Part shown: one piece after another, positions 1,609 to 32,190 of the stretch
Numbering within the stretch: position 1 is the stretch's first letter
How the letters are laid out: every line of letters starts with the position of its first letter
From: Desulfohalobiaceae bacterium
Lineage (GTDB): Bacteria; Desulfobacterota; Desulfovibrionia; Desulfovibrionales; Desulfothermaceae
Direction: 5' to 3'
DNA: 34,509 nucleotides
Assembly (NCBI GenBank): GCA_027013815.1
Contig: JALWFY010000116.1
Location: 1-34,509 of the forward strand
Translations under genes and position numbers: made by a program
The notes under the pieces: model-generated
Told to the model about the DNA's origin: nothing
Databases searched by the model: none
What the model saw: only the letters and a program-made list of their open reading frames with translations

Positions 1609-1822
1609 TAAGCTTTTACTCCCAAAAACGTGAAAAAAATTTACGTTTTTTATGGAAGTTAATTCATTGTATATATTAGGCTAAGGGCAAAGGGCTAATA
1701 ACAAAAGGGCTTAGAACCTTTTCTTTATCATCTCTTGTTCTTTTAGCCCTTTACCTTTACCCTTTAGCTTTTTATCACCTTCCATACCAACATGCAGTTT
1801 TAGAACTTTAGTTTGTTAAAAT
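1609..1822 (-). repeat. Composite intergenic repeat, copy 1
   Basis: Contains the A hairpin AAAAACGTG...TTTACGTTTTT (1624-1650), the block TTGTATAT(A) near 1667-1675, a heptad arm (GGCTAAG, GGCAAAG, GGCTAAT at 1679-1699), an inverted heptad arm (TTTAGCCC...CCCTTTAGC near 1742-1770) and a tail ending TTTAGTTTGTTAAAA (1808-1822) that matches the tail of copy 3. The AT palindrome (C module) present in copies 2, 3 and 5 is missing here. With the next block it fills the lon/MoxR spacer. Strand refers to the gene it precedes. Confidence 0.7.
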
Positions 1823-1846: not shown

Positions 1847-4297
1847 CTATTGGGCCTTTTGTATGGGTTCATCTTTTTTTAACTTACATGCAAGTGGCAT
1901 CACATCCTCAGTTTTTATAAAGATATCCTTTGGTTTTATATCTTTTAAGGCCAAGGGTAAGACCTCATCCATATGCTCAACTTCTATTATTTTTAGGTCT
2001 TTTAGAATTGTACCTGGGACCTCTTTTAAATCCTTGTCATTTTCCTTTGGGATAATCACCCTTGATACCAATCCCCTATGGGCTGCCAATAATTTCTCCC
2101 TCAAGCCACCAATTGGAAGTATACGTCCCCGTAATGTAATCTCTCCAGTCATGGCCACGTCGTTATTCACTGGTACATTTAACAGGGCTGAGACCAAGGC
2201 AGTTGCCATTGTGATACCTGCTGATGGACCATCCTTTGGAGTTGCACCTTCTGGTACATGGATATGTATATCCACATCCTTATAAAAATCTGGTCTTAAC
2301 CCAAAGAGTTCAGACCTAGACCTTACATAACTTAGTGCTGCCTTGGCAGACTCCTGCATCACTTCACCTATTTTTCCTGTAACCTCGACCTTTCCAGTAC
2401 CATTCATAATGGCTACTTCAATCATAAGGAGTTCCCCGCCCATCTCTGTCCATGCAAGTCCAGTTGCCACTCCCACCTGTGCCTTGTCCTCTTTTTCACC
2501 ATACCTAAACTGCGGAACCCCTAAATAAGAACCTATGGAATTCTTTGTAACCACTATCTTTCTTTCAAGGTCCTTACCATCTACCAATCTCTTGGCCACC
2601 TTCCTACATACAGATGCGATCTCCCTCTCTAGATTTCTCACACCTGCTTCTTTTGTATACTTCCTTATTATCTCAATAACTGCGCCATCAGAGAATTTAA
2701 CGTTCTTTCCCTCAAGTCCATGTCGCTTTTGCTGTTTTGGAACCAAAAAATATTTGGCGATCTTTATCTTTTCATCTTCTAAATATCCAGGTAAATGAAT
2801 AATCTCCATCCTATCCCTAAGTGCCCAAGGAATAGTCTGTAGGGTATTTGCTGTAGTAATAAAAAATACATTGGACAGATCATAACTCAAATCCAAATAA
2901 TGATCATTAAATGCATAATTTTGTTCAGGATCAAGTACTTCAAGGAGCGCAGCAGATGGATCACCCCTAAAATCTGTAGACATCTTATCCACTTCATCTA
3001 AACATATAACTGGGTTATTATATTTCTTCTTTCTTAGAGATAGTATAATCTTTCCTGGAAGGGCCCCCACATAAGTACGCCTGTGCCCCCTTATTTCTGC
3101 CTCGTCCCTGACTCCGCCTAAAGATATTCTAATAAAATCCCTATTCATCGCCCTGGCAATAGATTTGGCCAATGAGGTCTTCCCAACCCCTGGGGGGCCA
3201 ACAAAACAAAGTATAGGTCCTTTTACCTTGTCAACTAATTTCTGAACTGCAAGGTATTCAAGTATCCTTTGTTTTGGTTTTTTCAACCCATAATGATCTT
3301 CATCTAATATCTTGGCAGCCTCATCTATGTCTAATCTAGTCTCCTTTAACTCATCCCAAGGAAGCTCTAAGATACAATCCACATAATTTCTCACCACTGT
3401 ATATTCTGCTGAAGATGGGGGTATTTGTTTTAATTTTTTTATCTCCCCTATAGTCTTTTCCTTTGCATCCTCTGGCATGTTTTTTTCTTCCACTTGTTTA
3501 AGTAGGTTCTCAACCTCTTCAAAAGGATCTTGTTCCAATCCCATTTCCTTATGAATAGCCTTTAGCTGCTCATTTAAATAATAGTTCTTTTGATTGGATT
3601 CTATCTGTTGTTTTACCCTCTCATTGATCTTGGATTCTATTTCCAAAAACTCCATCTCACTAATGAGCAAACCATAGACTGACTCCAACTTCTTAATTGG
3701 GTCTAGTTCTTCTAATAGCTCTTGTTTTTTTTCAAAGCCAGCCCTTAAATGGGGTAAGATCCTATCCGCCAATTTTCCAGGAAGCTTGGTATCTAAAATC
3801 ATATTCAATGTATCAGAAGAAATCCGCCTAGAAACTTTAGCATATTTAGGCAAAAATTCCCGCACCATGTGGAGCAGTGCTTCTCCATCTTGAGTATGTT
3901 CCTCATGTTCTTCAATGGGAATAATATCTACTATTGGGAAACTCCCTTTATCGTCAAATAATGGTCCTTCTCCCTTCCATCTGGCTTTTTTTACACCTTC
4001 AAAAAGTACTTTTACTGTACCATCAGGGAGTTTAAGGAGTTGAAGTATCTTTGAAATTACCCCCACTGTATATATGTCTTCCTTTTCTGGAATCTCAATC
4101 TCTGGATTTTTCTGTGTTACCAAAAATATCCATTTATCATACTCAGCAAGGGAACTCTCCACTGCCTTTATTGAGCTCTTTCTACCCACATATAACGGAA
4201 CAATAGCACCAGGAAATATTACCACTTCCCTTAAAGTCATTAGAGGCAGTTGTTCAAAATTCATATTATATTCTGTATCATGAACAATTTCCTTCAT
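1847..4297 (-). CDS. lon: ATP-dependent protease Lon
   Basis: 816 aa, close to the usual length of LonA. The N-terminal substrate-binding domain (about 17-215) is followed by a coiled region, the AAA+ module with Walker A GPPGVGKT at 367-374 and Walker B CLDEVDKM, and the C-terminal protease domain. The catalytic dyad is Ser692 (in KDGPSAG) and Lys735 (in GGLREKLLAA), 43 residues apart as in E. coli Lon. The ATG has AGGAGG 8 nt upstream. It degrades misfolded and regulatory proteins in the cytoplasm. It follows clpX by 58 nt, so clpP-clpX-lon is probably one transcription unit. No HrcA/CIRCE-type operator was seen nearby. Confidence 0.98.
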   Translation of the reverse strand: MKEIVHDTEYNMNFEQLPLMTLREVVIFPGAIVPLYVGRKSSIKAVESSLAEYDKWIFLVTQKNPEIEIPEKEDIYTVGVISKILQLLKLPDGTVKVLFEGVKKARWKGEGPLFDDKGSFPIVDIIPIEEHEEHTQDGEALLHMVREFLPKYAKVSRRISSDTLNMILDTKLPGKLADRILPHLRAGFEKKQELLEELDPIKKLESVYGLLISEMEFLEIESKINERVKQQIESNQKNYYLNEQLKAIHKEMGLEQDPFEEVENLLKQVEEKNMPEDAKEKTIGEIKKLKQIPPSSAEYTVVRNYVDCILELPWDELKETRLDIDEAAKILDEDHYGLKKPKQRILEYLAVQKLVDKVKGPILCFVGPPGVGKTSLAKSIARAMNRDFIRISLGGVRDEAEIRGHRRTYVGALPGKIILSLRKKKYNNPVICLDEVDKMSTDFRGDPSAALLEVLDPEQNYAFNDHYLDLSYDLSNVFFITTANTLQTIPWALRDRMEIIHLPGYLEDEKIKIAKYFLVPKQQKRHGLEGKNVKFSDGAVIEIIRKYTKEAGVRNLEREIASVCRKVAKRLVDGKDLERKIVVTKNSIGSYLGVPQFRYGEKEDKAQVGVATGLAWTEMGGELLMIEVAIMNGTGKVEVTGKIGEVMQESAKAALSYVRSRSELFGLRPDFYKDVDIHIHVPEGATPKDGPSAGITMATALVSALLNVPVNNDVAMTGEITLRGRILPIGGLREKLLAAHRGLVSRVIIPKENDKDLKEVPGTILKDLKIIEVEHMDEVLPLALKDIKPKDIFIKTEDVMPLACKLKKDEPIQKAQ

Positions 4298-8092: not shown

Positions 8093-8180
8093 TGCGAGAG
8101 GGGAGACTCGAACTCCCACGGCCTAAATATGGGCCACTGGATCCTAAGTCCAGTGCGTCTACCAGTTCCGCCACTCTCGC
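8093..8180 (-). tRNA. tRNA-Leu (anticodon UAG)
   Basis: 88 nt on the minus strand. Acceptor stem GCGAGAG pairs with CTCTCGC, discriminator A at 8093. D-arm TGGCGGAACTGGTAGACGC, anticodon stem CTGGA/TCCAG with loop CTTAGGA, giving anticodon UAG (reads CUN). A long variable arm (GGCCC...GGCC) and T-arm GGGAGTTCGAGTCTCCC identify a class II leucine tRNA. CCA is not encoded. It is followed by an intrinsic terminator and then tig, a neighbour pair found in many bacteria. Confidence 0.97.
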
Positions 8181-11396: not shown

Positions 11397-11483
11397 ATAC
11401 CTTTTCCTCCTCAATAAATTCCATTTAATTTGTTGTCTTTCATATATAACTATATACGGCTTTATCCCCTTAGTTTCAGCTCT

Positions 11484-11650
11484 AAGCTTTTATTCTCAAA
11501 AACGATAAAAAATTTTGTTTTTTCTGAATTCTAACTCCTGGTATATAAGGCGAAGGGCTATTTTTTAATTTTAATTTTGAATTATAAGTTCTAAATTTTG
11601 AATGAAAAAAGGATTAATCCAAAATCCAAAATTCAACATCCAAAATTATT
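11484..11650 (-). repeat. Composite intergenic repeat, copy 2
   Basis: A hairpin AAAAACG...TTTGTTTTT (11498-11522, diverged), GTATATAAGG (11541-11550), one heptad arm GGCGAAGGGCTA (11549-11560) and the AATTTTG palindrome C (11572-11648). The inverted heptad arm and tail are absent. It sits in the dnaX-ybaB spacer, about 100 bp upstream of the ybaB ATG, with the A hairpin on the ybaB side. Confidence 0.7.
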
Positions 11651-16627: not shown

Positions 16628-16652
16628 CAAGAAATCCTTTTTATTAGTTATT

Positions 16653-16896
16653 TAAGCCTTTTCTTGCAAAAACGTGAAAAAAATTTACGTTTTTTCTAAA
16701 GCCTAACTCATTGTATATAAGGGCGAAGGGCTATTTTTTAATTTTAATTTTGAATTATAAATTCTAAATTTTGAATGAAAAAAGAATTAATCCAAAATCC
16801 AAAATTCAACATCTAATATATTAATGGTTTTCGCCTTTTGCCTTTCGCCGCCTTTCATATTAACCTGCAATTTCCCGGAGTTTAGTTTGTTTAAAA
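16653..16896 (-). repeat. Composite intergenic repeat, copy 3 (most complete)
   Basis: In order from the mtnA side: A hairpin AAAAACGTG...TTTACGTTTTT (16668-16695), TTGTATATAA (16711-16720), heptad arm GGGCGAAGGGCTA, C palindrome built of AATTTTGAAT words (16745-16818), inverted heptad arm CGCCTTTTGCCTTTCGCC (near 16831-16848), and tail TATTAACCTGCAATTT...TTTAGTTTGTTTAAAA (to 16896). It fills the gatB-mtnA spacer, and the A hairpin is about 40 bp from the mtnA ATG. Confidence 0.75.
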
Positions 16897-20462: not shown

Positions 20463-20517
20463 AAGTGGAACTCTGTACCTCCTGGATTTTGACCTTTTAG
20501 ACCTATTTTAATAAAGA
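20463..20517 (+). repeat. Decayed BOX-like palindrome element (P1-P3-P2 relic)
   Basis: AAGTGGAACTCTGT (20463-20476) is identical to the left arm and loop of P1 at 28462-28475, but its right arm is lost. TTGACCTTTTAGACC (20489-20503) resembles P3 at 28208-28224 with broken pairing. TTTAATAAAGA (20507-20517) resembles the left arm of P2. The order matches the intact copies. It lies 90-140 bp upstream of nadK. Confidence 0.5.
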
Positions 20518-20520
20518 TAA

Positions 20521-20760
20521 AAATTAATCCAAAATTCAAAATTCAACATCCAAAATTATATTAAACTGAAATTCCGAAAATTGCAGGTTAATATAAAAGA
20601 TGGCAAAAGGCTAAAGGCGAAAGGCAAAAGGTATAGGAGGAGTTAAAATGCGAATTCTTCCCTTTAGCCTTTAGCCCTTCGCCCTTAGCCTAAGGTAAAC
20701 AAGGACTTAGGATTTAGAAGAAACGTAAATTTTTTTCACATTTTTGAAATAAAAAGCATA
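20521..20760 (+). repeat. Composite intergenic repeat, copy 4 (inverted relative to the others)
   Basis: Half of the C palindrome (20521-20558), tail block AATTGCAGGTTAATAT (20579-20594), heptads GGCAAAA, GGCTAAA, GGCGAAA, GGCAAAA (20602-20629), a 30-nt loop, inverted heptads from 20660 to 20690, then the A hairpin AAACGTAAA...TTCACATTTTT (20720-20745). It lies in the divergent nadK/NUDIX spacer with the A hairpin about 25 bp from the ATG of the plus-strand gene. Confidence 0.7.
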
Positions 20761-23914: not shown

Positions 23915-24709
23915 TTAACTACAGATCAGCCTTGACAACTCTTCGTGGATCTTGCCATTTGTCGCCAGAATATTTGGAGAGTACAAATCAAAGGACCTAT
24001 TGGAAGAATATTGCGTTACCTTACCACCTGCTTCTTCCACCAATAGCCAGCCTGCTGCAACATCCCAAGGTTTTAAGCCCTTTTCATAAAATCCATCAAA
24101 TCTCCCACACGCAACATATGCCAAATCTATAGCAGCTGCGCCCATACGTCTAAGGCCTTGAGCTGCCATAAGTACATTTTGTATTGGGCCAATGACCTCC
24201 TGCATCTGATTGCGAATATTATATGGAAACCCTGTTGCAATTAGGCTATTATTCATTAAAGAGACACAAGATACCCCAATGGGCTGAGAATTTAAATAAG
24301 CGCCTTGTCCTTTTATGGCATAAAAAGTCTCGTTTATAATAGGAAGGTTTATTATCCCTACCACCACCTCCCCTTGGATCAAAAGGGCAACAGATGTAGC
24401 CACCATTGGGAGGGCATGGGCAAAATTAGTGGTCCCATCAATGGGGTCAATTATCCACACTGGCTCTCCACCTATGATGTTGCCATGAGAAGATTCTTCA
24501 GCAAGAAATTGTGCATCCAGGATCTGTTTTAATCCTTTTTTTAACTCCTCTTCCACCGTTATATCAATCTCTGTAACTAGATCTATCTCTCCTTTGTGTT
24601 TTACCTTTATGTCTGTGCCTATCCTGGACTTAATTATATTGCCCGTCTCTTTAACAAGGTAAATGGCCTGCCCTAAAATTTTTTTTAAATCTCTATTTGT
24701 GATCTTCAT
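23915..24709 (-). CDS. suhB: Inositol-1-monophosphatase family protein (SuhB-like)
   Basis: 264 aa. Metal-binding motifs of the family: LAEESSHG, WIIDPIDGTTNFAHALP (near 84-100), and the C-terminal KPWDVAAGWLLVEEAGGKV. Li-sensitive, Mg-dependent sugar-phosphate phosphatase; substrate could be inositol-1-phosphate, fructose-1,6-bisphosphate or NADP, since these activities share the fold. No clear Shine-Dalgarno precedes the ATG. Instead the A hairpin of composite repeat copy 5 begins about 16 nt upstream. The spacer 23682-23914 shows nothing I can name. Confidence 0.9.
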   Translation of the reverse strand: MKITNRDLKKILGQAIYLVKETGNIIKSRIGTDIKVKHKGEIDLVTEIDITVEEELKKGLKQILDAQFLAEESSHGNIIGGEPVWIIDPIDGTTNFAHALPMVATSVALLIQGEVVVGIINLPIINETFYAIKGQGAYLNSQPIGVSCVSLMNNSLIATGFPYNIRNQMQEVIGPIQNVLMAAQGLRRMGAAAIDLAYVACGRFDGFYEKGLKPWDVAAGWLLVEEAGGKVTQYSSNRSFDLYSPNILATNGKIHEELSRLICS

Positions 24710-24718
24710 ATTAAGCTT

Positions 24719-24918
24719 TTTTATGAAAAACTTGAAAAAAATTTACGTTTTTCCTAAATCCTAGGTCATTGTATATAAAGGCGAAGGGCTATTTTTTAAT
24801 TTTGAATTATAAATTCTAAATTTTGAATGAAAAAAGGATTAATCCAAAATCCAAAATTCAACATCCAAAATTATATTAATGGTTTTCGCCTTTAGCCTCA
24901 TATGCCTTTTGCCGTCTT
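24719..24918 (-). repeat. Composite intergenic repeat, copy 5 (main part)
   Basis: A hairpin AAAAACTTG...TTTACGTTTTT (24725-24752), TTGTATATAA (24769-24778), heptad arm AGGCGAAGGGCTA, C palindrome (24797-24873) and inverted heptads TTTTCGCCTTTAGCC...GCCTTTTGCCG. The repeat is then interrupted at about 24918 by the BOX-like element and resumes at 25028 with TAACCTGCAATTTT. It lies between mreB and the suhB-like gene, with the A hairpin facing suhB. Confidence 0.7.
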
Positions 24919-25027
24919 AGCGGAACTTCGTTCCGCTTACTGCTTACGCATATTTTTTAATAAGGATTTATTCCTTATTTTAAAATTTGGCCAATGGCCA
25001 AAGTAAAGCGAAACTTCGTTTCGCTTT
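24919..25027 (-). repeat. BOX-like element, intact copy (P1-P3-P2-P5-P1 on the minus strand)
   Basis: Five palindromes in a row. In plus-strand order: AGCGGAAC/GTTCCGCT (24919-24937), TGC-TTAC-GCA (24941-24950), AATAAGGA/TCCTTATT (24959-24979), TTTGGCCA/TGGCCAAA (24986-25002), AAAGCGAAAC/GTTTCGCTTT (25005-25027). All arms pair perfectly. Read on the minus strand, the order and length match the plus-strand array at 28377-28486. It interrupts composite repeat copy 5. No coding capacity. Confidence 0.8.
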
Positions 25028-25060
25028 AACCTGCAATTTTCAAAACTTCAGATTGATATA
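25028..25060 (-). repeat. Composite intergenic repeat copy 5, tail continued after the BOX-like insertion
   Basis: TAACCTGCAATTTT at 25027-25040 continues the tail module seen uninterrupted in copies 3 and 4. The following 25061-25229 is AT-rich with one phased repeat (separate entry) and an AATTTTG-type block near 25160-25210. Confidence 0.6.
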
Positions 25061-25081
25061 TTCCTTACCTCTGGAACAATG

Positions 25082-25117
25082 AATTACTACAAATTACAAT
25101 TAATTACCATAAATTAC
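25082..25117. repeat. Four AATTAC repeats at exact 10-bp spacing
   Basis: AATTAC occurs at 25082, 25092, 25102 and 25112, with a weaker ACTCAC at 25122. The 10-bp step places the copies on one helix face. It lies in the spacer between the mreB stop and the suhB-like gene. Function unknown. Confidence 0.5.
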
Positions 25118-25229
25118 ATTCACTCACCTAAAACCTAACATAATATTTATCTAGTTAAGTTTAATGTTCATTTTTAATTCATAACTCAAAATCCATAATT
25201 CAAAATTATTACTAATATAATGAAATCTA

Positions 25230-26258
25230 CTAATTAATAAATACCTGTTTATATACCTTCTCATTTTCCATTGCTATACCAGTCCCCCTTACAACAGTAG
25301 TTAGGGGATCATCGTCAACCACTACATTTATATTTGCCTCTTCTCTAATAAGCCTATCAAGCCCCCTTAGCAGGGCCCCTCCTCCTGCCAATAAAATCCC
25401 ATTTTGAGCAACATCTGCCACAAGTTGGGGAGAGGTCTTCTCCAATGCCCTGATAACTGATTCAACAATCATATTAACAGGGTCTTTTATACATTGTGCT
25501 ACTTCTTGTTCTGTCAATTCTATGAGTTGAGGTGCTCCGTTCATCAAATTCTTCCCAGTAATCCTCATTGTCCTTTGTTCATCTCCCACATAATAAGAAT
25601 TCCCTAATTCTATTTTTATCTGCTCTGCGAGATTTTCACCAATTAAGACCTTATATTCATCTTTTAAGTACCTTTGAATTGATTCATTTATCTCATCACC
25701 AGCTATTCTAACAGACTCTGAATATGCCACTGCTGATAGGGAGATTACAGCCACTTCCGTAGTTCCACCTCCAATATCCACTACCATATTCCCAACTGGT
25801 TTTTCAATTGGCAGATTAGCACCAATTGCTGCAGCCATGGGCTCTTCTATGAGTTTTACCTCCCTAGCACCAGCCTGTTGTGCAGATTCTATTACTGCCC
25901 TCATCTCCACCTGGGTAATACCTGTTGGGACACAAATGACCATCTTGGGTTTTACAAGTTGCAACCCCTTAATCACTTTTTTTATAAAATAGGACATCAT
26001 TATTTTTGTAACCTCAAAGTCTGCAATAACTCCATCTTTAAGAGGTCTAATGGCCCTTATTTTTTCAGGGGTCCTGCCCAAGAATTCTTTTGCCTCAGTC
26101 CCAACTGCTAGCACCTTACTAGTCCTTGCATCCAATGCCACAACTGAGGGCTCGTTCAACACTATACCATCCTTAGCAGTATAGAGAAGGGTATTTGCAG
26201 TACCTAGGTCCATTGCAAGGTCTTTTCCTAAAAAATTTAACAACTTCTTAAAAAACAT
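25230..26258 (-). CDS. mreB: Rod-shape-determining protein MreB
   Basis: 342 aa actin-fold ATPase. Phosphate-1 motif AMDLGTANTLLY near 15-26, adenosine and phosphate-2 motif VVDIGGGTTEVAVIS, connect motif EEPMAAAIGA, and GILLAGGGALLRGLDRLI. Forms membrane-associated filaments that guide lateral wall synthesis, so the cell is probably rod-shaped or curved. mreC and mreD do not follow; the next stretch is a repeat-filled 520-bp spacer. Upstream, 2 nt away, is the GAF-domain gene. Confidence 0.98.
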   Translation of the reverse strand: MFFKKLLNFLGKDLAMDLGTANTLLYTAKDGIVLNEPSVVALDARTSKVLAVGTEAKEFLGRTPEKIRAIRPLKDGVIADFEVTKIMMSYFIKKVIKGLQLVKPKMVICVPTGITQVEMRAVIESAQQAGAREVKLIEEPMAAAIGANLPIEKPVGNMVVDIGGGTTEVAVISLSAVAYSESVRIAGDEINESIQRYLKDEYKVLIGENLAEQIKIELGNSYYVGDEQRTMRITGKNLMNGAPQLIELTEQEVAQCIKDPVNMIVESVIRALEKTSPQLVADVAQNGILLAGGGALLRGLDRLIREEANINVVVDDDPLTTVVRGTGIAMENEKVYKQVFIN

Positions 26259-26260
26259 AG

Positions 26261-27238
26261 TCAGTTTTTAACCTCTCTTTTTTTCTTCCTCAATTTATCT
26301 TTTAAATATAGATTTTCTAAAAATAAGGACATGTGATTGCTCAACAAACAGAAAAAATCTGATAGCCCTTTAGATATATTTTTTTTTCTTTTATCCAAAA
26401 AGACAAATACACCCCTGGTCTTTAAATTCACTATTAAGGGCAAACAAACAATGGTATGAAATTCTTTTCCCATATAATTCTTGCCAAAAAGAGAAGATAC
26501 ACATCTGTCTCTTTCTTGGGATAAAATTATGCTCTTATGATTTTTAAACACCCAGCCAATTACGCCATCGTTTATATGAAATCTCTTACCCTCAAGACCC
26601 TCCATTCCCTCTATTTTTTTATTACACCTCTCCAAATAATAACCTGTGCCCCTCTCATTTCTTGATACAAATAGACAATAAAAAAAACCAGTATACGTAG
26701 ACAATATGTTTAAAAGTTGCAATAGATATTCGTCCCATTTTGGGAACTTATCCTTAAGAGAACATATGGTCTGAAATGCATTGTAATAATCAACAACATA
26801 TTCAGTTTCCTGCACCTTACTGTATTCATCTAAAAAGCTGTCTACCAATTTGGCAAAATTATACAAGATCTTTAAATCCTTTTCAGTAAAAGTGTAGGTC
26901 TTTTTACTGTCCACACAAAGGACACCCCTTCCCTTTTGTAAGGGCACCCCCATAAAGGATTTGATCCTCTGTTCCTCTCCTTTTAAATAATAACAAAGGG
27001 TCCTGTTTTCCCTTGAAAAATCATTTATAACAAGTGACTTTTTGTTTTTTATTATCCAACCCACTATACCCTGACCATAATTTACCTTACTATGTAAATT
27101 TATGTTGTCCCCTAAACTAAAATAAGACACCAAAGAATAAATAGGACCTATATTCTTTAAAAACAATACACTACTATATGCGTCAAACACATTAGATACA
27201 GTACTTAAAAGATCTCTATAAAAAGGGGTAGAGGACAT
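26261..27238 (-). CDS. Tandem GAF-domain protein
   Basis: 325 aa, cytoplasmic, no signal or membrane segment. Two GAF-like units: the first about residues 15-140 (GQGIVGWIIKNKKSLVINDF, FMGVPLQKGRGVLCVDSKK) and the second about 165-315 (NDGVIGWVFKNHKSIILSQERD, VCLPLIVNLKTRGVFVFLDKRK). No output domain such as HisKA or GGDEF. It probably senses a small molecule or redox state and signals by contact. Start ATG overlaps the stop of the DUF6485 gene by one base (TAATG), and it ends 2 nt before mreB, so the three are co-transcribed and a link to cell-shape control is an inference. Confidence 0.8.
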   Translation of the reverse strand: MSSTPFYRDLLSTVSNVFDAYSSVLFLKNIGPIYSLVSYFSLGDNINLHSKVNYGQGIVGWIIKNKKSLVINDFSRENRTLCYYLKGEEQRIKSFMGVPLQKGRGVLCVDSKKTYTFTEKDLKILYNFAKLVDSFLDEYSKVQETEYVVDYYNAFQTICSLKDKFPKWDEYLLQLLNILSTYTGFFYCLFVSRNERGTGYYLERCNKKIEGMEGLEGKRFHINDGVIGWVFKNHKSIILSQERDRCVSSLFGKNYMGKEFHTIVCLPLIVNLKTRGVFVFLDKRKKNISKGLSDFFCLLSNHMSLFLENLYLKDKLRKKKREVKN

Positions 27239-27447
27239 TATCTTTTAAACCTTGACTTAAAGTAAAATTCAATACTCCGATCATAGGTCTTTTCTTCATC
27301 TTTAGTAAAATAACATGCAGGTAATTCCCCTCTCTGTCTATGATACCTCACACACTCACAACAAATTCCATGTTTTGAACACGATGGGTATGTACAAGGA
27401 CAATCCTTTGAATTTATCTCGTATCTTGGACATTTCTCTTTTTCCAT
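27238..27447 (-). CDS. Small Cys-rich protein, DUF6485-like
   Basis: 69 aa from ATG at 27447, chosen because AAGGAG lies 6 nt upstream; ATG 27453 and TTG 27468 are less well placed. Seven cysteines in the N-terminal two thirds ([31 protein letters not shown]) plus PACYF suggest a metal or Fe-S site. The pattern matches a small uncharacterised family, recalled as DUF6485. Function unknown. It overlaps the GAF-protein gene by one base. Confidence 0.7.
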
Positions 27448-27571
27448 AGCCATCTCCTTTTGATTCAAGAAAGTTCTAGGAAGGATTATTATGCGAGATT
27501 TAGCTCCCTATAATTTTTATTGAATTAAACATACAAGGTCAAGGTGAAAATAGATAGCCATTTAAACATCA

Positions 27572-28171
27572 CTATTCCTTTGTAAGCATAAATATTCCAT
27601 AAATAGCAAAAAAATTTGGAAAAAATCTTACCACCTTTCCTGTTTCCTCATGATGATAAGTACTTATATTTATTTGTTTTTGTATCTTAAATCCAAAAAT
27701 AGAACAAAATCTCTTAAAGTCTGTGATTCCTATTCTCCTTATATTTGGAGTATCAAACCATTCATACGGAAGTTCTCTGGAAATAGGGGCCCTGCCTTTT
27801 AAGAAAAAATAGAACCGATTTTTATAATGACTAAAATTTGGGAAACTTACAATACCCTTTCTACCCACCCTTAACATCTCAGCAATCAACCACGTAGGGC
27901 GATACACCTGTTGTAAGGTTTGACTGAGTATCACATAATCAAAGGTATTATCAGCGTAGTCTCTGATCTCTTCATTAATATCCCCATGGATTACGCTCAC
28001 CCCCCTAAAAATTGCCTGGGTAACCTTTTCCTCGTCGATCTCGATTCCTGTACCATGAACACCTCTTTTTTTCTGCAAATATTCAAGTAATACACCATTG
28101 CCACATCCAAGGTCCAATACACTACTCTTTGGCCTTATCCAATACGCAATGGTCTTTAGATCAAATCTCAT
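27572..28171 (-). CDS. metW: Methionine biosynthesis protein MetW
   Basis: 199 aa from ATG at 28171 with AGGAG 5 nt upstream; a GTG two codons earlier is less likely. SAM-methyltransferase-like fold with DLGCGNG at 20-26, GIEIDEEKV, FDYVILSQTLQQV and the MetW-typical GKEGIVSFPNF-like region (GRKGIVSFPNFSHYKNR), RAPISRELPYEWFDTPNIR. In bacteria with MetX it supports homoserine acetylation or succinylation, usually as metXW. Here metX lies upstream in the same direction but 303 bp of palindrome array separates them. Confidence 0.95.
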   Translation of the reverse strand: MRFDLKTIAYWIRPKSSVLDLGCGNGVLLEYLQKKRGVHGTGIEIDEEKVTQAIFRGVSVIHGDINEEIRDYADNTFDYVILSQTLQQVYRPTWLIAEMLRVGRKGIVSFPNFSHYKNRFYFFLKGRAPISRELPYEWFDTPNIRRIGITDFKRFCSIFGFKIQKQINISTYHHEETGKVVRFFPNFFAIYGIFMLTKE

Positions 28172-28181
28172 TTCCACTCCT

Positions 28182-28486
28182 AAAGCGGAGCTTTGCCCCG
28201 CTTTATCTTGGCCTTTCAGGCCAACTTTAATAAGGAATTTTATGATAATTTTGAATTATGGATTATGGATTTTGAATTAAAAATAAAATGTTATAGTGGT
28301 CGTGGTTAACTGAATATTAATACAAAATTCAAAATTTAAAATCCAAAATTTTTTATCATAAAAGGCGTAAGCCCTTAAAGTGAAGCAAAGCTTCAACTTT
28401 ATCGTGGCCCTTTGGGCCATATTTAATAAGGAATAAATTCCTTATCATAGGCGTAAGCCCTAAGTGGAACTCTGTTCCACTTAGGG
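28182..28486 (+). repeat. Tandem BOX-like palindrome array in the metX-metW spacer
   Basis: Plus-strand order: P1 (28182-28204, one mismatch), P3 TTGGCCT/AGGCCAA (28208-28224), left half of P2 (28228-28235), an AT-rich inverted repeat (28238-28363), P5 GGC-GTAA-GCC (28364-28373), P1 (28377-28400, one bulge), P3 TGGCCC/GGGCCA (28405-28419), P2 (28426-28445), P5 (28450-28459), P1 (28458-28486, perfect 13-bp arms). The last P1 overlaps the metX stop codon. The pattern is two P1-P3-P2-P5 units closed by P1. Confidence 0.8.
28238..28363. repeat. AT-rich inverted-repeat element with 11-bp ends, inside the BOX-like array
   Basis: Perfect inverted ends TTTTATGATAA (28238-28248) and TTATCATAAAA (28353-28363) enclose AATTTTGAATT-type words on the left and their inverse (CAAAATTCAAAATTTAAAAT) on the right. 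It replaces or splits P2 of the first BOX-like unit. It is related in word content to the C module of the composite repeats and to 6292-6393. Non-coding. Confidence 0.6.
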
Positions 28487-29638
28487 ACAAGAGATATTAA
28501 AACTCAATTTTTGTAAAAAACCCATTATCAGGCTAGAGAGTTTGGGATTTGGAACTAAAAAGGAATCATGACCATAGTCTATCCTAATTTCACAAAAATT
28601 TACATCCAGTCGATTTTTTTTCATGGCCTTTACCATTTCCCTAGACTGATACGTGGGATATAGCCAATCGGAAGTAAAAGATATAACTAAAAATTGCGCC
28701 CTGGCCTTGGAAAAGGCCTTGACCAAGGAACTATCTCCATGGGAATCAGCCAAGTTAAAATGATCAGTTGCACGAGTTAAATACAACAGAGAATTGGCGT
28801 CAAACCTATTTACAAATTTTTCTCCTTGGTGCCTTAGATAACTTGAGACCTGAAAATCTGTCTCAAATACACCTAAGTTAGGTCCCTTTTCCTGAATCCT
28901 TCTGTCAAATTTCTTTCTAAGGGCCACATCGGAAAGATAAGTAACATGTCCAATCATTCTAGCTACTGCCTGTCCATGGACAGGAGGGACCTTTCCATAA
29001 TAATCTCCATTGTTCCAATTTGGATCACTCATAATTGCCTGTCTTGCCACTTCATTAAACGCTATGGCCATGGCAGAATGTTTAGTAGTTGTGGCGATTG
29101 GGATAGCACCGATAACAGCTTCAGGATACCTAACAGCCCATTCTAAGACCTGCATACCCCCCATTGAGCCGCCTATTACTGCCAAAACCTTTTTTATCCC
29201 AAGATAATCTATTAGTTTTTTTTGAGCATATACCATGTCCCCTATAGTCACTGTAGGAAATCTTATACCATATTCTCTCCCTGTCTTCGGATCCACAGAA
29301 TTGGGACCTGAAGACCCCATGCATCCACCTAATACATTTGAACAAATAACAAAGTATTTATTAGTATCTATTGCCTTATTTGGCCCGATCATGTGATCCC
29401 ACCAACCAGGATCTTGATCTGTTTTTGTGTAATATCCCGCAGCATGGGAGTCCCCTGTCAATGCATGGAGGACCAAAACAGCATTGGTCTTATCCCTGTT
29501 CAATTCCCCATAGGTTTCATATGCTATGGTCACTGGGCCTAACTTCTGACCACATTCAAAGATCATCTCATGGGGCGGATGTGCAAAATGAAAATATTTT
29601 TTTTCAACTAAACCAACATCCCCCTTTAACGCGCACAT
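28481..29638 (-). CDS. metX: Homoserine O-acetyltransferase
   Basis: 385 aa from ATG at 29638 (GGAG 7 nt upstream; a TTG four codons earlier is less likely). Alpha/beta-hydrolase acyltransferase: GPVTIAYETYGELN, NAVLVLHALTGDSHAAG, nucleophile Ser158 in GGSMGGMQ, catalytic Asp in FTSDWLYPT and His in YGHDSFL near the C-terminus. Activates homoserine with acetyl-CoA (or succinyl-CoA in some homologues) for methionine synthesis. Pairs with metW downstream. No SAM riboswitch was recognised in its leader. Confidence 0.96.
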   Translation of the reverse strand: MCALKGDVGLVEKKYFHFAHPPHEMIFECGQKLGPVTIAYETYGELNRDKTNAVLVLHALTGDSHAAGYYTKTDQDPGWWDHMIGPNKAIDTNKYFVICSNVLGGCMGSSGPNSVDPKTGREYGIRFPTVTIGDMVYAQKKLIDYLGIKKVLAVIGGSMGGMQVLEWAVRYPEAVIGAIPIATTTKHSAMAIAFNEVARQAIMSDPNWNNGDYYGKVPPVHGQAVARMIGHVTYLSDVALRKKFDRRIQEKGPNLGVFETDFQVSSYLRHQGEKFVNRFDANSLLYLTRATDHFNLADSHGDSSLVKAFSKARAQFLVISFTSDWLYPTYQSREMVKAMKKNRLDVNFCEIRIDYGHDSFLVPNPKLSSLIMGFLQKLSFNISCP

Positions 29639-31980: not shown

Positions 31981-32081
31981 TGTTTTTCCCTTTGTGCAAC
32001 TTAAGGGAATCAAACTAAAATTTGATTTTTAATTTTTTCTTGTATCTTGCTTTTTTTTTTGTTAAAAACAACCTTCGTTTT

Positions 32082-32190
32082 TTACCCCGTTAGATAAAAT
32101 ACCCCGTCTGTAAGGGCGAGGATGAGAATTTTTTGAATAAACCAGAGTTGGGAGGAGCCTAAAGGTCCTTTCAAATCTTCTAAATAGGGG
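32082..32190. repeat. Relative of the palindromic element at 1531-1599
   Basis: TTACCCCGTTAGATAAAAT (32082-32100) matches 1530-1548 with a single difference. A degraded right arm, TTCTAAATAGGGGGTTAGG, lies near 32178-32196. It is in the 287-bp spacer between fdhD and the cytochrome gene. The rest of that spacer is AT-rich with T-runs and nothing I can name. Confidence 0.4.

What the first reader, a model, noticed from the sequence alone, without database searches (positions are those of the whole stretch)
24919..28486. BOX-like element built from five ordered palindromes (P1-P3-P2-P5-P1)
Seen directly: at 25027-24919 (minus strand) and 28377-28486 (plus strand) the same five short palindromes occur in the same order over 109 and 110 bp. 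Spacer words are partly conserved too (CTTTA after P1, TTTAATAAGGAAT at P2). A fixed module order with diverging sequence resembles the logic of pneumococcal BOX elements, but the modules are different from any family I can recall. It has no ORF, so if it moves it must be mobilised in trans, or be maintained for an RNA or DNA role.
Basis: partly seen in the sequence, partly recalled or inferred. Interest (0 to 1): 0.75.

Follow-up and report, generated by a model that had tools for sequence, protein, structure and literature searches.

The report
Multicopy string of five DNA hairpins
This bacterium carries dozens of copies of a short, protein-free DNA element made of five hairpins in a fixed order, wedged between its genes; it resembles known small "hitch-hiker" repeats of other bacteria but matched no family we could test, and we did not find it in its close relatives.

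Summary
Both copies are real, share five palindromes in one order, and fold far better than shuffles (z -6.6 to -9.2). The element is a genome-wide family: 59 loci in the 2.59-Mb draft of this organism (same genus as Desulfothermus okinawensis), not found in 40 relatives. Grammar: (P1-P3-P2-P5)n-P1, n = 0-2 seen, P2 sometimes opened by an AT-rich insert. Two orthologous operon gaps are 0-43 bp in two same-genus genomes, against ~300 and 520 bp here, so the elements arrived in this lineage. Hairpin arms covary without significant strand asymmetry, P1 loops occur in both orientations, and orientation to genes is not significantly biased; this favours DNA-level hairpins over a conserved RNA. No general target-site duplication and no Y1 or IS630-type transposase was found, so it is BOX/BIME-like in design but not BOX, REP or standard MITE by test. 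Most likely a new non-autonomous interspersed repeat whose palindromes are kept by template switching; its mobiliser is unknown.

The parts
28377..28486 (+). P-element copy B, full unit P1-P3-P2-P5-P1 (P1 28377-28400, P3 28405-28419, P2 28425-28445, P5 28450-28459, P1 28458-28486); its last P1 holds the metX stop codon (28481-28483, gene on minus strand)
28181..28376 (+). preceding unit of the same array: P1 (28181-28205), P3 (28208-28224), left half of P2 (28226-28238), AT-rich insert (28239-28362), P5 (28364-28373); shares the next P1 with copy B
   Evidence: sequence; hits; the same long form at L012/L025, L147, L150
24919..25028 (-). P-element copy A (P1 25028-25004, P3 25002-24986, P2 24979-24959, P5 24949-24942, P1 24937-24919)
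24711..25060 (-). ~350-bp composite repeat ('A-type') in which copy A is an optional cassette
16652..16891 (-). A-type composite without the palindrome cassette (cassette-free comparison within the window)
   Evidence: (L043)
20558..20760 (+). A-type composite without cassette
20463..20522 (+). weak relic resembling P1-P3-P2 (18.6 bits)
11483..11649 (-). partial A-type composite, no cassette
   Evidence: (L059)
1609..1819 (-). diverged A-type composite, no cassette (left end 1776-1819, right end 1609-1672)

Best explanation
It is a non-coding, multicopy interspersed repeat that spread after this species split from its sequenced relatives, mostly into gaps beside or between genes. The unit is a string of four different DNA hairpins (P1-P3-P2-P5) closed by another P1; arrays grow or shrink by whole units between P1 copies. 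SHOWN: copy number, order, unit variation, absence from the relatives searched, short orthologous gaps without it, within-copy arm covariation, loops present in both orientations, no target-site duplication beyond chance. INFERRED: the hairpins form in single-stranded DNA during replication or repair; polymerase template switching between the arms keeps them paired and flips the loops; recombination between P1 copies changes the unit number; new copies arise non-autonomously, by an unidentified activity or by repair-type insertion that leaves no target duplication. One subset (15-16 copies) multiplied by riding inside a separate ~350-bp repeat.
For: Family: 73 blast matches and 94 covariance-model matches (both strands counted) in the own genome, merged to 59 loci. 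Relatives: 0 of 40 by DNA, 0 of 10 by covariance model. Gaps: metX-metW is 0 bp in G003, 43 bp in G002, ~300 bp here; mreB-suhB is 2 bp in G003, 23 bp in G002, 520 bp here. Among 24 A-type copies with both ends, 12 carry the cassette, 11 lack it and 1 (L040) keeps one hybrid P1 (n = 0); cassette state and AT-region variant occur in all four combinations, one of them (cassette plus alternative AT region) in a single copy. Pairing: 90.2% of 707 cells; covariation score reached by 0 of 500 shuffles. First-P1 arms match each other 96%/88% within a copy (arm positions 1-5/6-10) against 57%/55% between copies. No significant strand asymmetry: 41 G-T vs 30 A-C cells, p = 0.24. Loops of the 36 P1 hairpins that passed the filter: AAA 13/TTT 6, TCT 6/AGA 2, GAA 2/TTC 1, others 6; of 19 P3 loops TTTCA 9/TGAAA 1, TTTTA 4/TAAAA 1. 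Arm homogenisation plus spacer inversion is how the start of the abstract of PMC8604942 describes template switching between inverted repeats; the title and abstract start of PMC8794818 say the same process can create and maintain hairpins (both seen only in the listing).
Against: No transposition and no polymorphism between strains was seen; only one genome of the species was held. Arm covariation can also be inherited within subfamilies or selected: two of the five measures are weaker (pairs with two-sided change, 4 of 500 shuffles; further pair types, 19 of 500). The palindrome does not reliably extend into unique flanks (arm positions 11-14, p about 0.05 at either end), as vigorous template switching might produce. 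Transposase absence was tested for two families only, in a 95%-complete draft of 219 contigs, several of which end in these repeats.
Confidence: 0.55

Rival explanations
1. A conventional MITE/BOX-type element moved in trans by a DDE insertion-sequence transposase that recognises the terminal P1 palindromes as inverted repeats.
For: Similar hairpins at both ends; intergenic, multicopy, non-coding; degraded IS-like genes (named by eye from translations) carry copies; one copy (L145) is flanked by an 8-bp direct repeat TATCCACC.
Against: No target-site duplication beyond chance over 31 copies: mean longest shared word 4.13 vs 4.28 permuted, p = 0.83; one copy with a word of 7 or more where 0.91 is expected. 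No IS630-type DDE_3 match in the own genome. Other transposase families were not searched.
Confidence: 0.2
2. A REP/BIME (REPIN) system mobilised by a Y1 REP-associated transposase.
For: Extragenic palindromes in ordered arrays, often near gene ends (27 of 48 within 30 bp of an ORF); no duplication is expected from Y1 enzymes (recalled).
Against: No PF01797 match in the own genome, while 5 of 14 control genomes rang. REP tag sequences were not looked for.
Confidence: 0.05
3. A functional RNA element (mRNA stabiliser, processing site or attenuator) conserved by selection in operon gaps.
For: Compensatory changes; P5 is GGC-GTAA-GCC in several copies, a GNRA-like loop; three copies lie beside tRNA genes; the metX stop codon lies in P1 and AGGAG before metW adjoins the array.
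Against: Orientation relative to co-directional genes 10 ++ vs 20 --, p = 0.10; no significant G-U over A-C excess; absent from the two orthologous operon gaps examined in G002 and G003; unit number variable; fewer in co-directional gaps than background gene pairs (30 of 48 vs 270 of 329, p = 0.003).
Confidence: 0.15
4. Chance similarity of ordinary terminator hairpins.
For: Some single copies sit where terminators would.
Against: E = 1e-9 between the two copies and 59 loci; of 48 strong non-coding hairpins in a 427-kb sample I count 25 as modules of this element (list; the sample contigs were chosen partly because they held matches).
Confidence: 0.01

Closest known systems
BOX elements of Streptococcus pneumoniae (PMC3049150; passages read)
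   Same: Composite, module-ordered, mostly intergenic repeat, typically under 200 bp, with a variable number of internal units, hairpin-rich, confined to a species and near relatives, found nested with other repeats
   Different: Here the repeated unit is four palindromes and the same class of palindrome closes both ends; no target-site duplication beyond chance, whereas BOX is reported to cause them. BOX sequences themselves were not compared.
REP/BIME/REPIN elements
   Same: Extragenic palindromes in mosaic arrays
   Different: Five hairpins of four kinds in one fixed order; no Y1 transposase match in the genome
RUP, ERIC, Correia/NEMIS-type MITEs (as described in PMC3049150 passages)
   Same: Short non-coding insertions in and around transcription units
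   Different: No single long terminal inverted repeat seen, no duplication beyond chance, no IS630-type transposase match; sequences not compared
Double-hairpin elements of Allomyces mitochondrial DNA and palindromes of Fusarium and Lobosphaera mitochondria (known here only through passages of PMC7218506)
   Same: Hairpin-forming repeats, many in spacers, optional between close relatives, no mobiliser named in the passages seen
   Different: Bacterial chromosome; five-hairpin unit; sequences not compared

Membership tests
BOX (pneumococcal) | composite of ordered modules with variable internal unit number | tested here: met
   fixed order; n = 0 (L040), 1 (commonest), 2 (28181-28486; C54:6241-6438; C99:26727-26917):
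BOX (pneumococcal) | boxA/boxB/boxC sequence homology | not tested
   BOX sequences were not fetched; Rfam scan of 24600-28600 gave 0 matches up to E = 1, but whether Rfam holds BOX was not checked
BOX / MITE | target-site duplication | tested here: not met
   31 non-composite copies, mean shared word 4.13 vs 4.28 permuted, p = 0.83; 1 of 31 has an 8-bp repeat
BOX / MITE | terminal inverted repeats | tested here: inconclusive
   both ends are P1 palindromes, so inverted similarity follows from palindromy
REP/BIME/REPIN | REP-associated Y1 transposase in the genome | tested here: not met
   PF01797: 0 matches in own genome, 5 candidates scored; controls ring in 5 of 14; draft 95% complete
RUP-type (IS630-mobilised) MITE | IS630-family transposase (DDE_3) in the genome | tested here: not met
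   PF13358: 0 matches in own genome, 4 candidates scored; controls ring in 3 of 14
known structured RNA family | match to an Rfam model | tested here: not met
   only a tRNA (8093-8180) in the window at gathering threshold; 0 at E <= 1 over 24600-28600

The most novel reading that the evidence does not exclude
A transposase-independent interspersed repeat: a string of DNA hairpins that keeps itself paired and flips its loops by replication template switching, loses or gains units by P1-P1 recombination, and enters new sites through hairpin-prone repair events without target duplication. It would be a bacterial counterpart of the double-hairpin elements of mitochondria.
Probability: 0.15. Interest if true: 0.7.

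Novelty: new member of a known kind. Interest (0 to 1): 0.42.

Why it matters
It adds a lineage-specific composite palindromic repeat from a sulfate-reducer genus (Desulfothermus; thermophily recalled) and shows two operon gaps of 0-43 bp in relatives swollen to ~300-520 bp without coding gain. Copies with flipped loops and mutually matching arms are a natural data set for asking whether DNA template switching, rather than selection on RNA, maintains bacterial extragenic palindromes.

Tried and rejected
Rfam: nothing at the element. Named collections: an exact-pattern scan of genome contigs and two of viral contigs gave 0 (the tool may leave out the own genome); plasmids, copy B, no match. Phages, A-type query: 42 records matched at E <= 1; the five rows listed all match an AT-rich stretch (query 227-293, E = 0.01), which I take as low-complexity chance; 37 rows were not seen. 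Target-site duplication: rejected statistically. Palindrome extension into unique flanks, suggested by C29:2846-2955 and C111:63411-63518, is only marginal overall and is not claimed. Strand asymmetry of mismatched pairs: not significant. Another copy of the IS-like gene interrupted at L145 was sought to read its empty site: none in own genome, G001 or G002, one 89-bp partial match in G003. The unknown ORF behind the related end repeat in G003 had no Pfam or NCBIfam match and no match in own genome, G001 or G002. A first orientation tally mixed redundant and A-type copies (++17, --16, +-10, -+7, 7 at contig edges); I use. The pattern had my wrong loop length and found nothing.

Counts dropped: 14 of 45 copies were set aside as A-type, and copies without 36 bases at both ends were skipped, hairpins scoring under 6 and copies with short flanks were skipped, leaving 26 first and 28 last P1; only P1 with six perfect pairs, a 3-base loop and a fixed arm pattern were counted (36 of at most 62), 4 of 52 B/C copies at contig edges were left out, and gene calls were my own longest-ORF calls; one search used loci L031-L060 (30 of the 47 matches). 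Searches scored part of the first-look candidates (40 of 67 or fewer and 40 of 222; 150 of 1923; 150 per genome of 292-1660 for nine genomes and all 124 of G008), so 59 loci is a lower bound.

Full report
OBSERVATION. They match each other over about 110 bp at 73% identity (E = 1e-9 in an own-genome search) and fold as four (plus copy) or five (minus copy) separate hairpins, with 0 of 200 dinucleotide shuffles folding as well. Two things were missed. The plus copy is the second half of an array: a first unit at 28181-28376 carries P1, P3, the left half of P2, an AT-rich insert of about 120 bp and P5, and shares the next P1. The minus copy lies inside a ~350-bp repeat, 24711-25060, on the minus strand.

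A GENOME-WIDE FAMILY. The window is one contig of a 2.59-Mb, 219-contig draft (95% complete). Blast with copy B gives 73 matches. A covariance model built from 20 copies gives 94, counting both strands. Merged, these are 63 intervals at 59 loci; 15 (hand list) or 16 lie inside the 350-bp composite. The shared grammar is (P1-P3-P2-P5)n-P1: n = 1 is commonest; n = 2 occurs at 28181-28486, C54:6241-6438 and C99:26727-26917; one composite copy (L040) keeps a single hybrid P1, n = 0. P2 is sometimes opened by an AT-rich insert of roughly 90-125 bp (window, L012/L025, L147, L150). A subfamily beginning ACCGAAGC...GCTTCGGT (four copies) sits in degraded genes: an IS-like integrase gene (L145), IS-like scraps (two in L146), and a broken RhuM-like gene at C29:2843-2956. 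The peptide on one side of the last matches Pfam RhuM at 9e-16; the other side has only sub-threshold matches and no NCBIfam family above its cut-off. The IS names are mine, from reading translations. Of 48 strong non-coding hairpins in the 427-kb sample I count 25 as modules of this element (list); the sample contigs were chosen partly because they held matches.

WHERE IT CAME FROM. None of 40 relatives (3 same genus, 7 same family, 30 same order) has a DNA match, and none of 10 has a covariance-model match (the tool warns that an empty answer alone shows nothing, but the same model rings 94 times in the own genome). Orthologous gaps indicate arrival in this lineage: mreB-suhB is 2 bp in G003 and 23 bp in G002 against 520 bp here; metX-metW is 0 bp and 43 bp against about 300 bp. 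In G001 the mreB-suhB gap also looks short (sequence), but its metX-metW spacer is longer and unlike ours; it is a damaged draft (43% complete) and I do not lean on it.

DNA OR RNA? Arms of a hairpin agree with each other far more than arms of different copies do: for the first P1, 0.96 vs 0.57 and 0.88 vs 0.55 at arm positions 1-5 and 6-10 (26 copies); for the last P1, 0.95 vs 0.63 and 0.82 vs 0.57 (28 copies); 0 of 2000 permutations reach these. Over the whole structure 90.2% of 707 cells pair and 13 of 37 pairs show a two-sided change (reached by 4 of 500 shuffles); the covariation score is reached by 0 of 500, further pair types by 19 of 500. Relatedness can inflate this control. If RNA of one strand were the selected form, G-U cells should outnumber A-C cells; they do not significantly (41 vs 30, p = 0.24), though transcription of both strands would give the same. 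Orientation to co-directional neighbours is not significantly biased (10 vs 20, p = 0.10). Loops occur in both orientations with few intermediates: of 36 P1 loops AAA 13/TTT 6, TCT 6/AGA 2, GAA 2/TTC 1, and six others, of which only one (ATA) lies between AAA and TTT. Homogenised arms plus inverted spacers are what the abstract start of PMC8604942 describes for template switching; PMC8794818 (title and abstract start) says that process can create and maintain hairpins (listing). I infer that mechanism; I did not observe it.

HOW DOES IT MOVE? Not shown. Flanks of 31 non-composite copies carry no duplication beyond chance (4.13 vs 4.28, p = 0.83); L145 with TATCCACC is the one long shared word. 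No Y1 and no DDE_3 gene was found; other transposases were not searched. Compared with neighbouring gene pairs in the sample, the elements are under-represented in co-directional gaps (30 of 48 vs 270 of 329, p = 0.003), as expected of tolerated insertions; gene calls were my simple longest-ORF calls. The composite that carries copy A is a separate repeat. Of 24 copies with both ends, 12 hold the cassette, 11 do not and 1 holds only P1; cassette state and AT variant occur in all four combinations, one of them once, so cassettes have probably been gained, lost or recombined.

COMPARISON. BOX is the best functional analogue (composite, variable unit number, lineage-bound), but BOX is reported to have terminal inverted repeats and to cause target duplications (PMC3049150, passages read), and the duplication test fails here. 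REP/BIME needs a Y1 partner, which was not found. Mitochondrial double-hairpin elements are an analogue known here only through passages of PMC7218506. Paper searches for such repeats in Desulfothermus (0 papers) or in Desulfo- species with MITE and palindrome terms (10 of 12 listed) showed no title or abstract start describing it; this covers only the open-licence library. A general search of palindromic repeats was seen as a listing of 20 of 394.

VERDICT. A real, apparently undescribed, lineage-specific composite palindromic repeat family; BOX-like in design but not BOX by test; mobiliser unknown; hairpins probably maintained at the DNA level.

Noticed in passing
24711-25060 (-), 16652-16891 (-), 20558-20760 (+), 11483-11649 (-), 1609-1819 (-); 40 distinct right ends in held own-genome sequence: A separate intergenic repeat (186-371 bp in 24 copies) whose right end often lies just upstream of start codons and points with the downstream gene in 29 of 35 cases (p = 1e-4), unlike the palindrome element.
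   Followed up: partly
L166-L172 (G002, G003): Same-genus genomes carry a ~78-bp repeat (TAACTCAAGAACTTGCAATGATTTAAG...CGTAAATTTTTTTCACGTTTTT...AAAAGCTTA) that matches the right end of the own composite; the own copies look like this repeat swollen by internal hairpins.
   Followed up: partly
L173 (G003:C195) about 2906-3650, and L170: In G003 that repeat lies behind the 3' end of a degraded ORF with no Pfam or NCBIfam match, a possible autonomous partner; no match in the own genome.
   Followed up: partly
L011 1417-1501, L015 1582-1675, L016 1424-1701: Three palindrome elements lie beside tRNA genes (tRNA-Leu, tRNA-Ser, and between tRNA-Leu and tRNA-Phe); the first two start at the base after the tRNA 3' end.
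   Followed up: no
C111:63411-63518 (L132): The last P1 is embedded in a terminator-like hairpin GGCGGGTAATCCC...GGGATTACCCGCC followed by a T run, as if P5 had been rewritten to match the flank.
   Followed up: partly
28169-28205: The metW-side end of the array adjoins AGGAG (28181-28177) a few bases before the metW ATG (28171), so the element's edge may serve as ribosome-binding context.
   Followed up: no
1528-1564 and 32080-32116: Two 37-bp direct repeats, TTTTACCC(T/C)GTTAGATAAAAT..., 78% identical, 30.5 kb apart.
   Followed up: no
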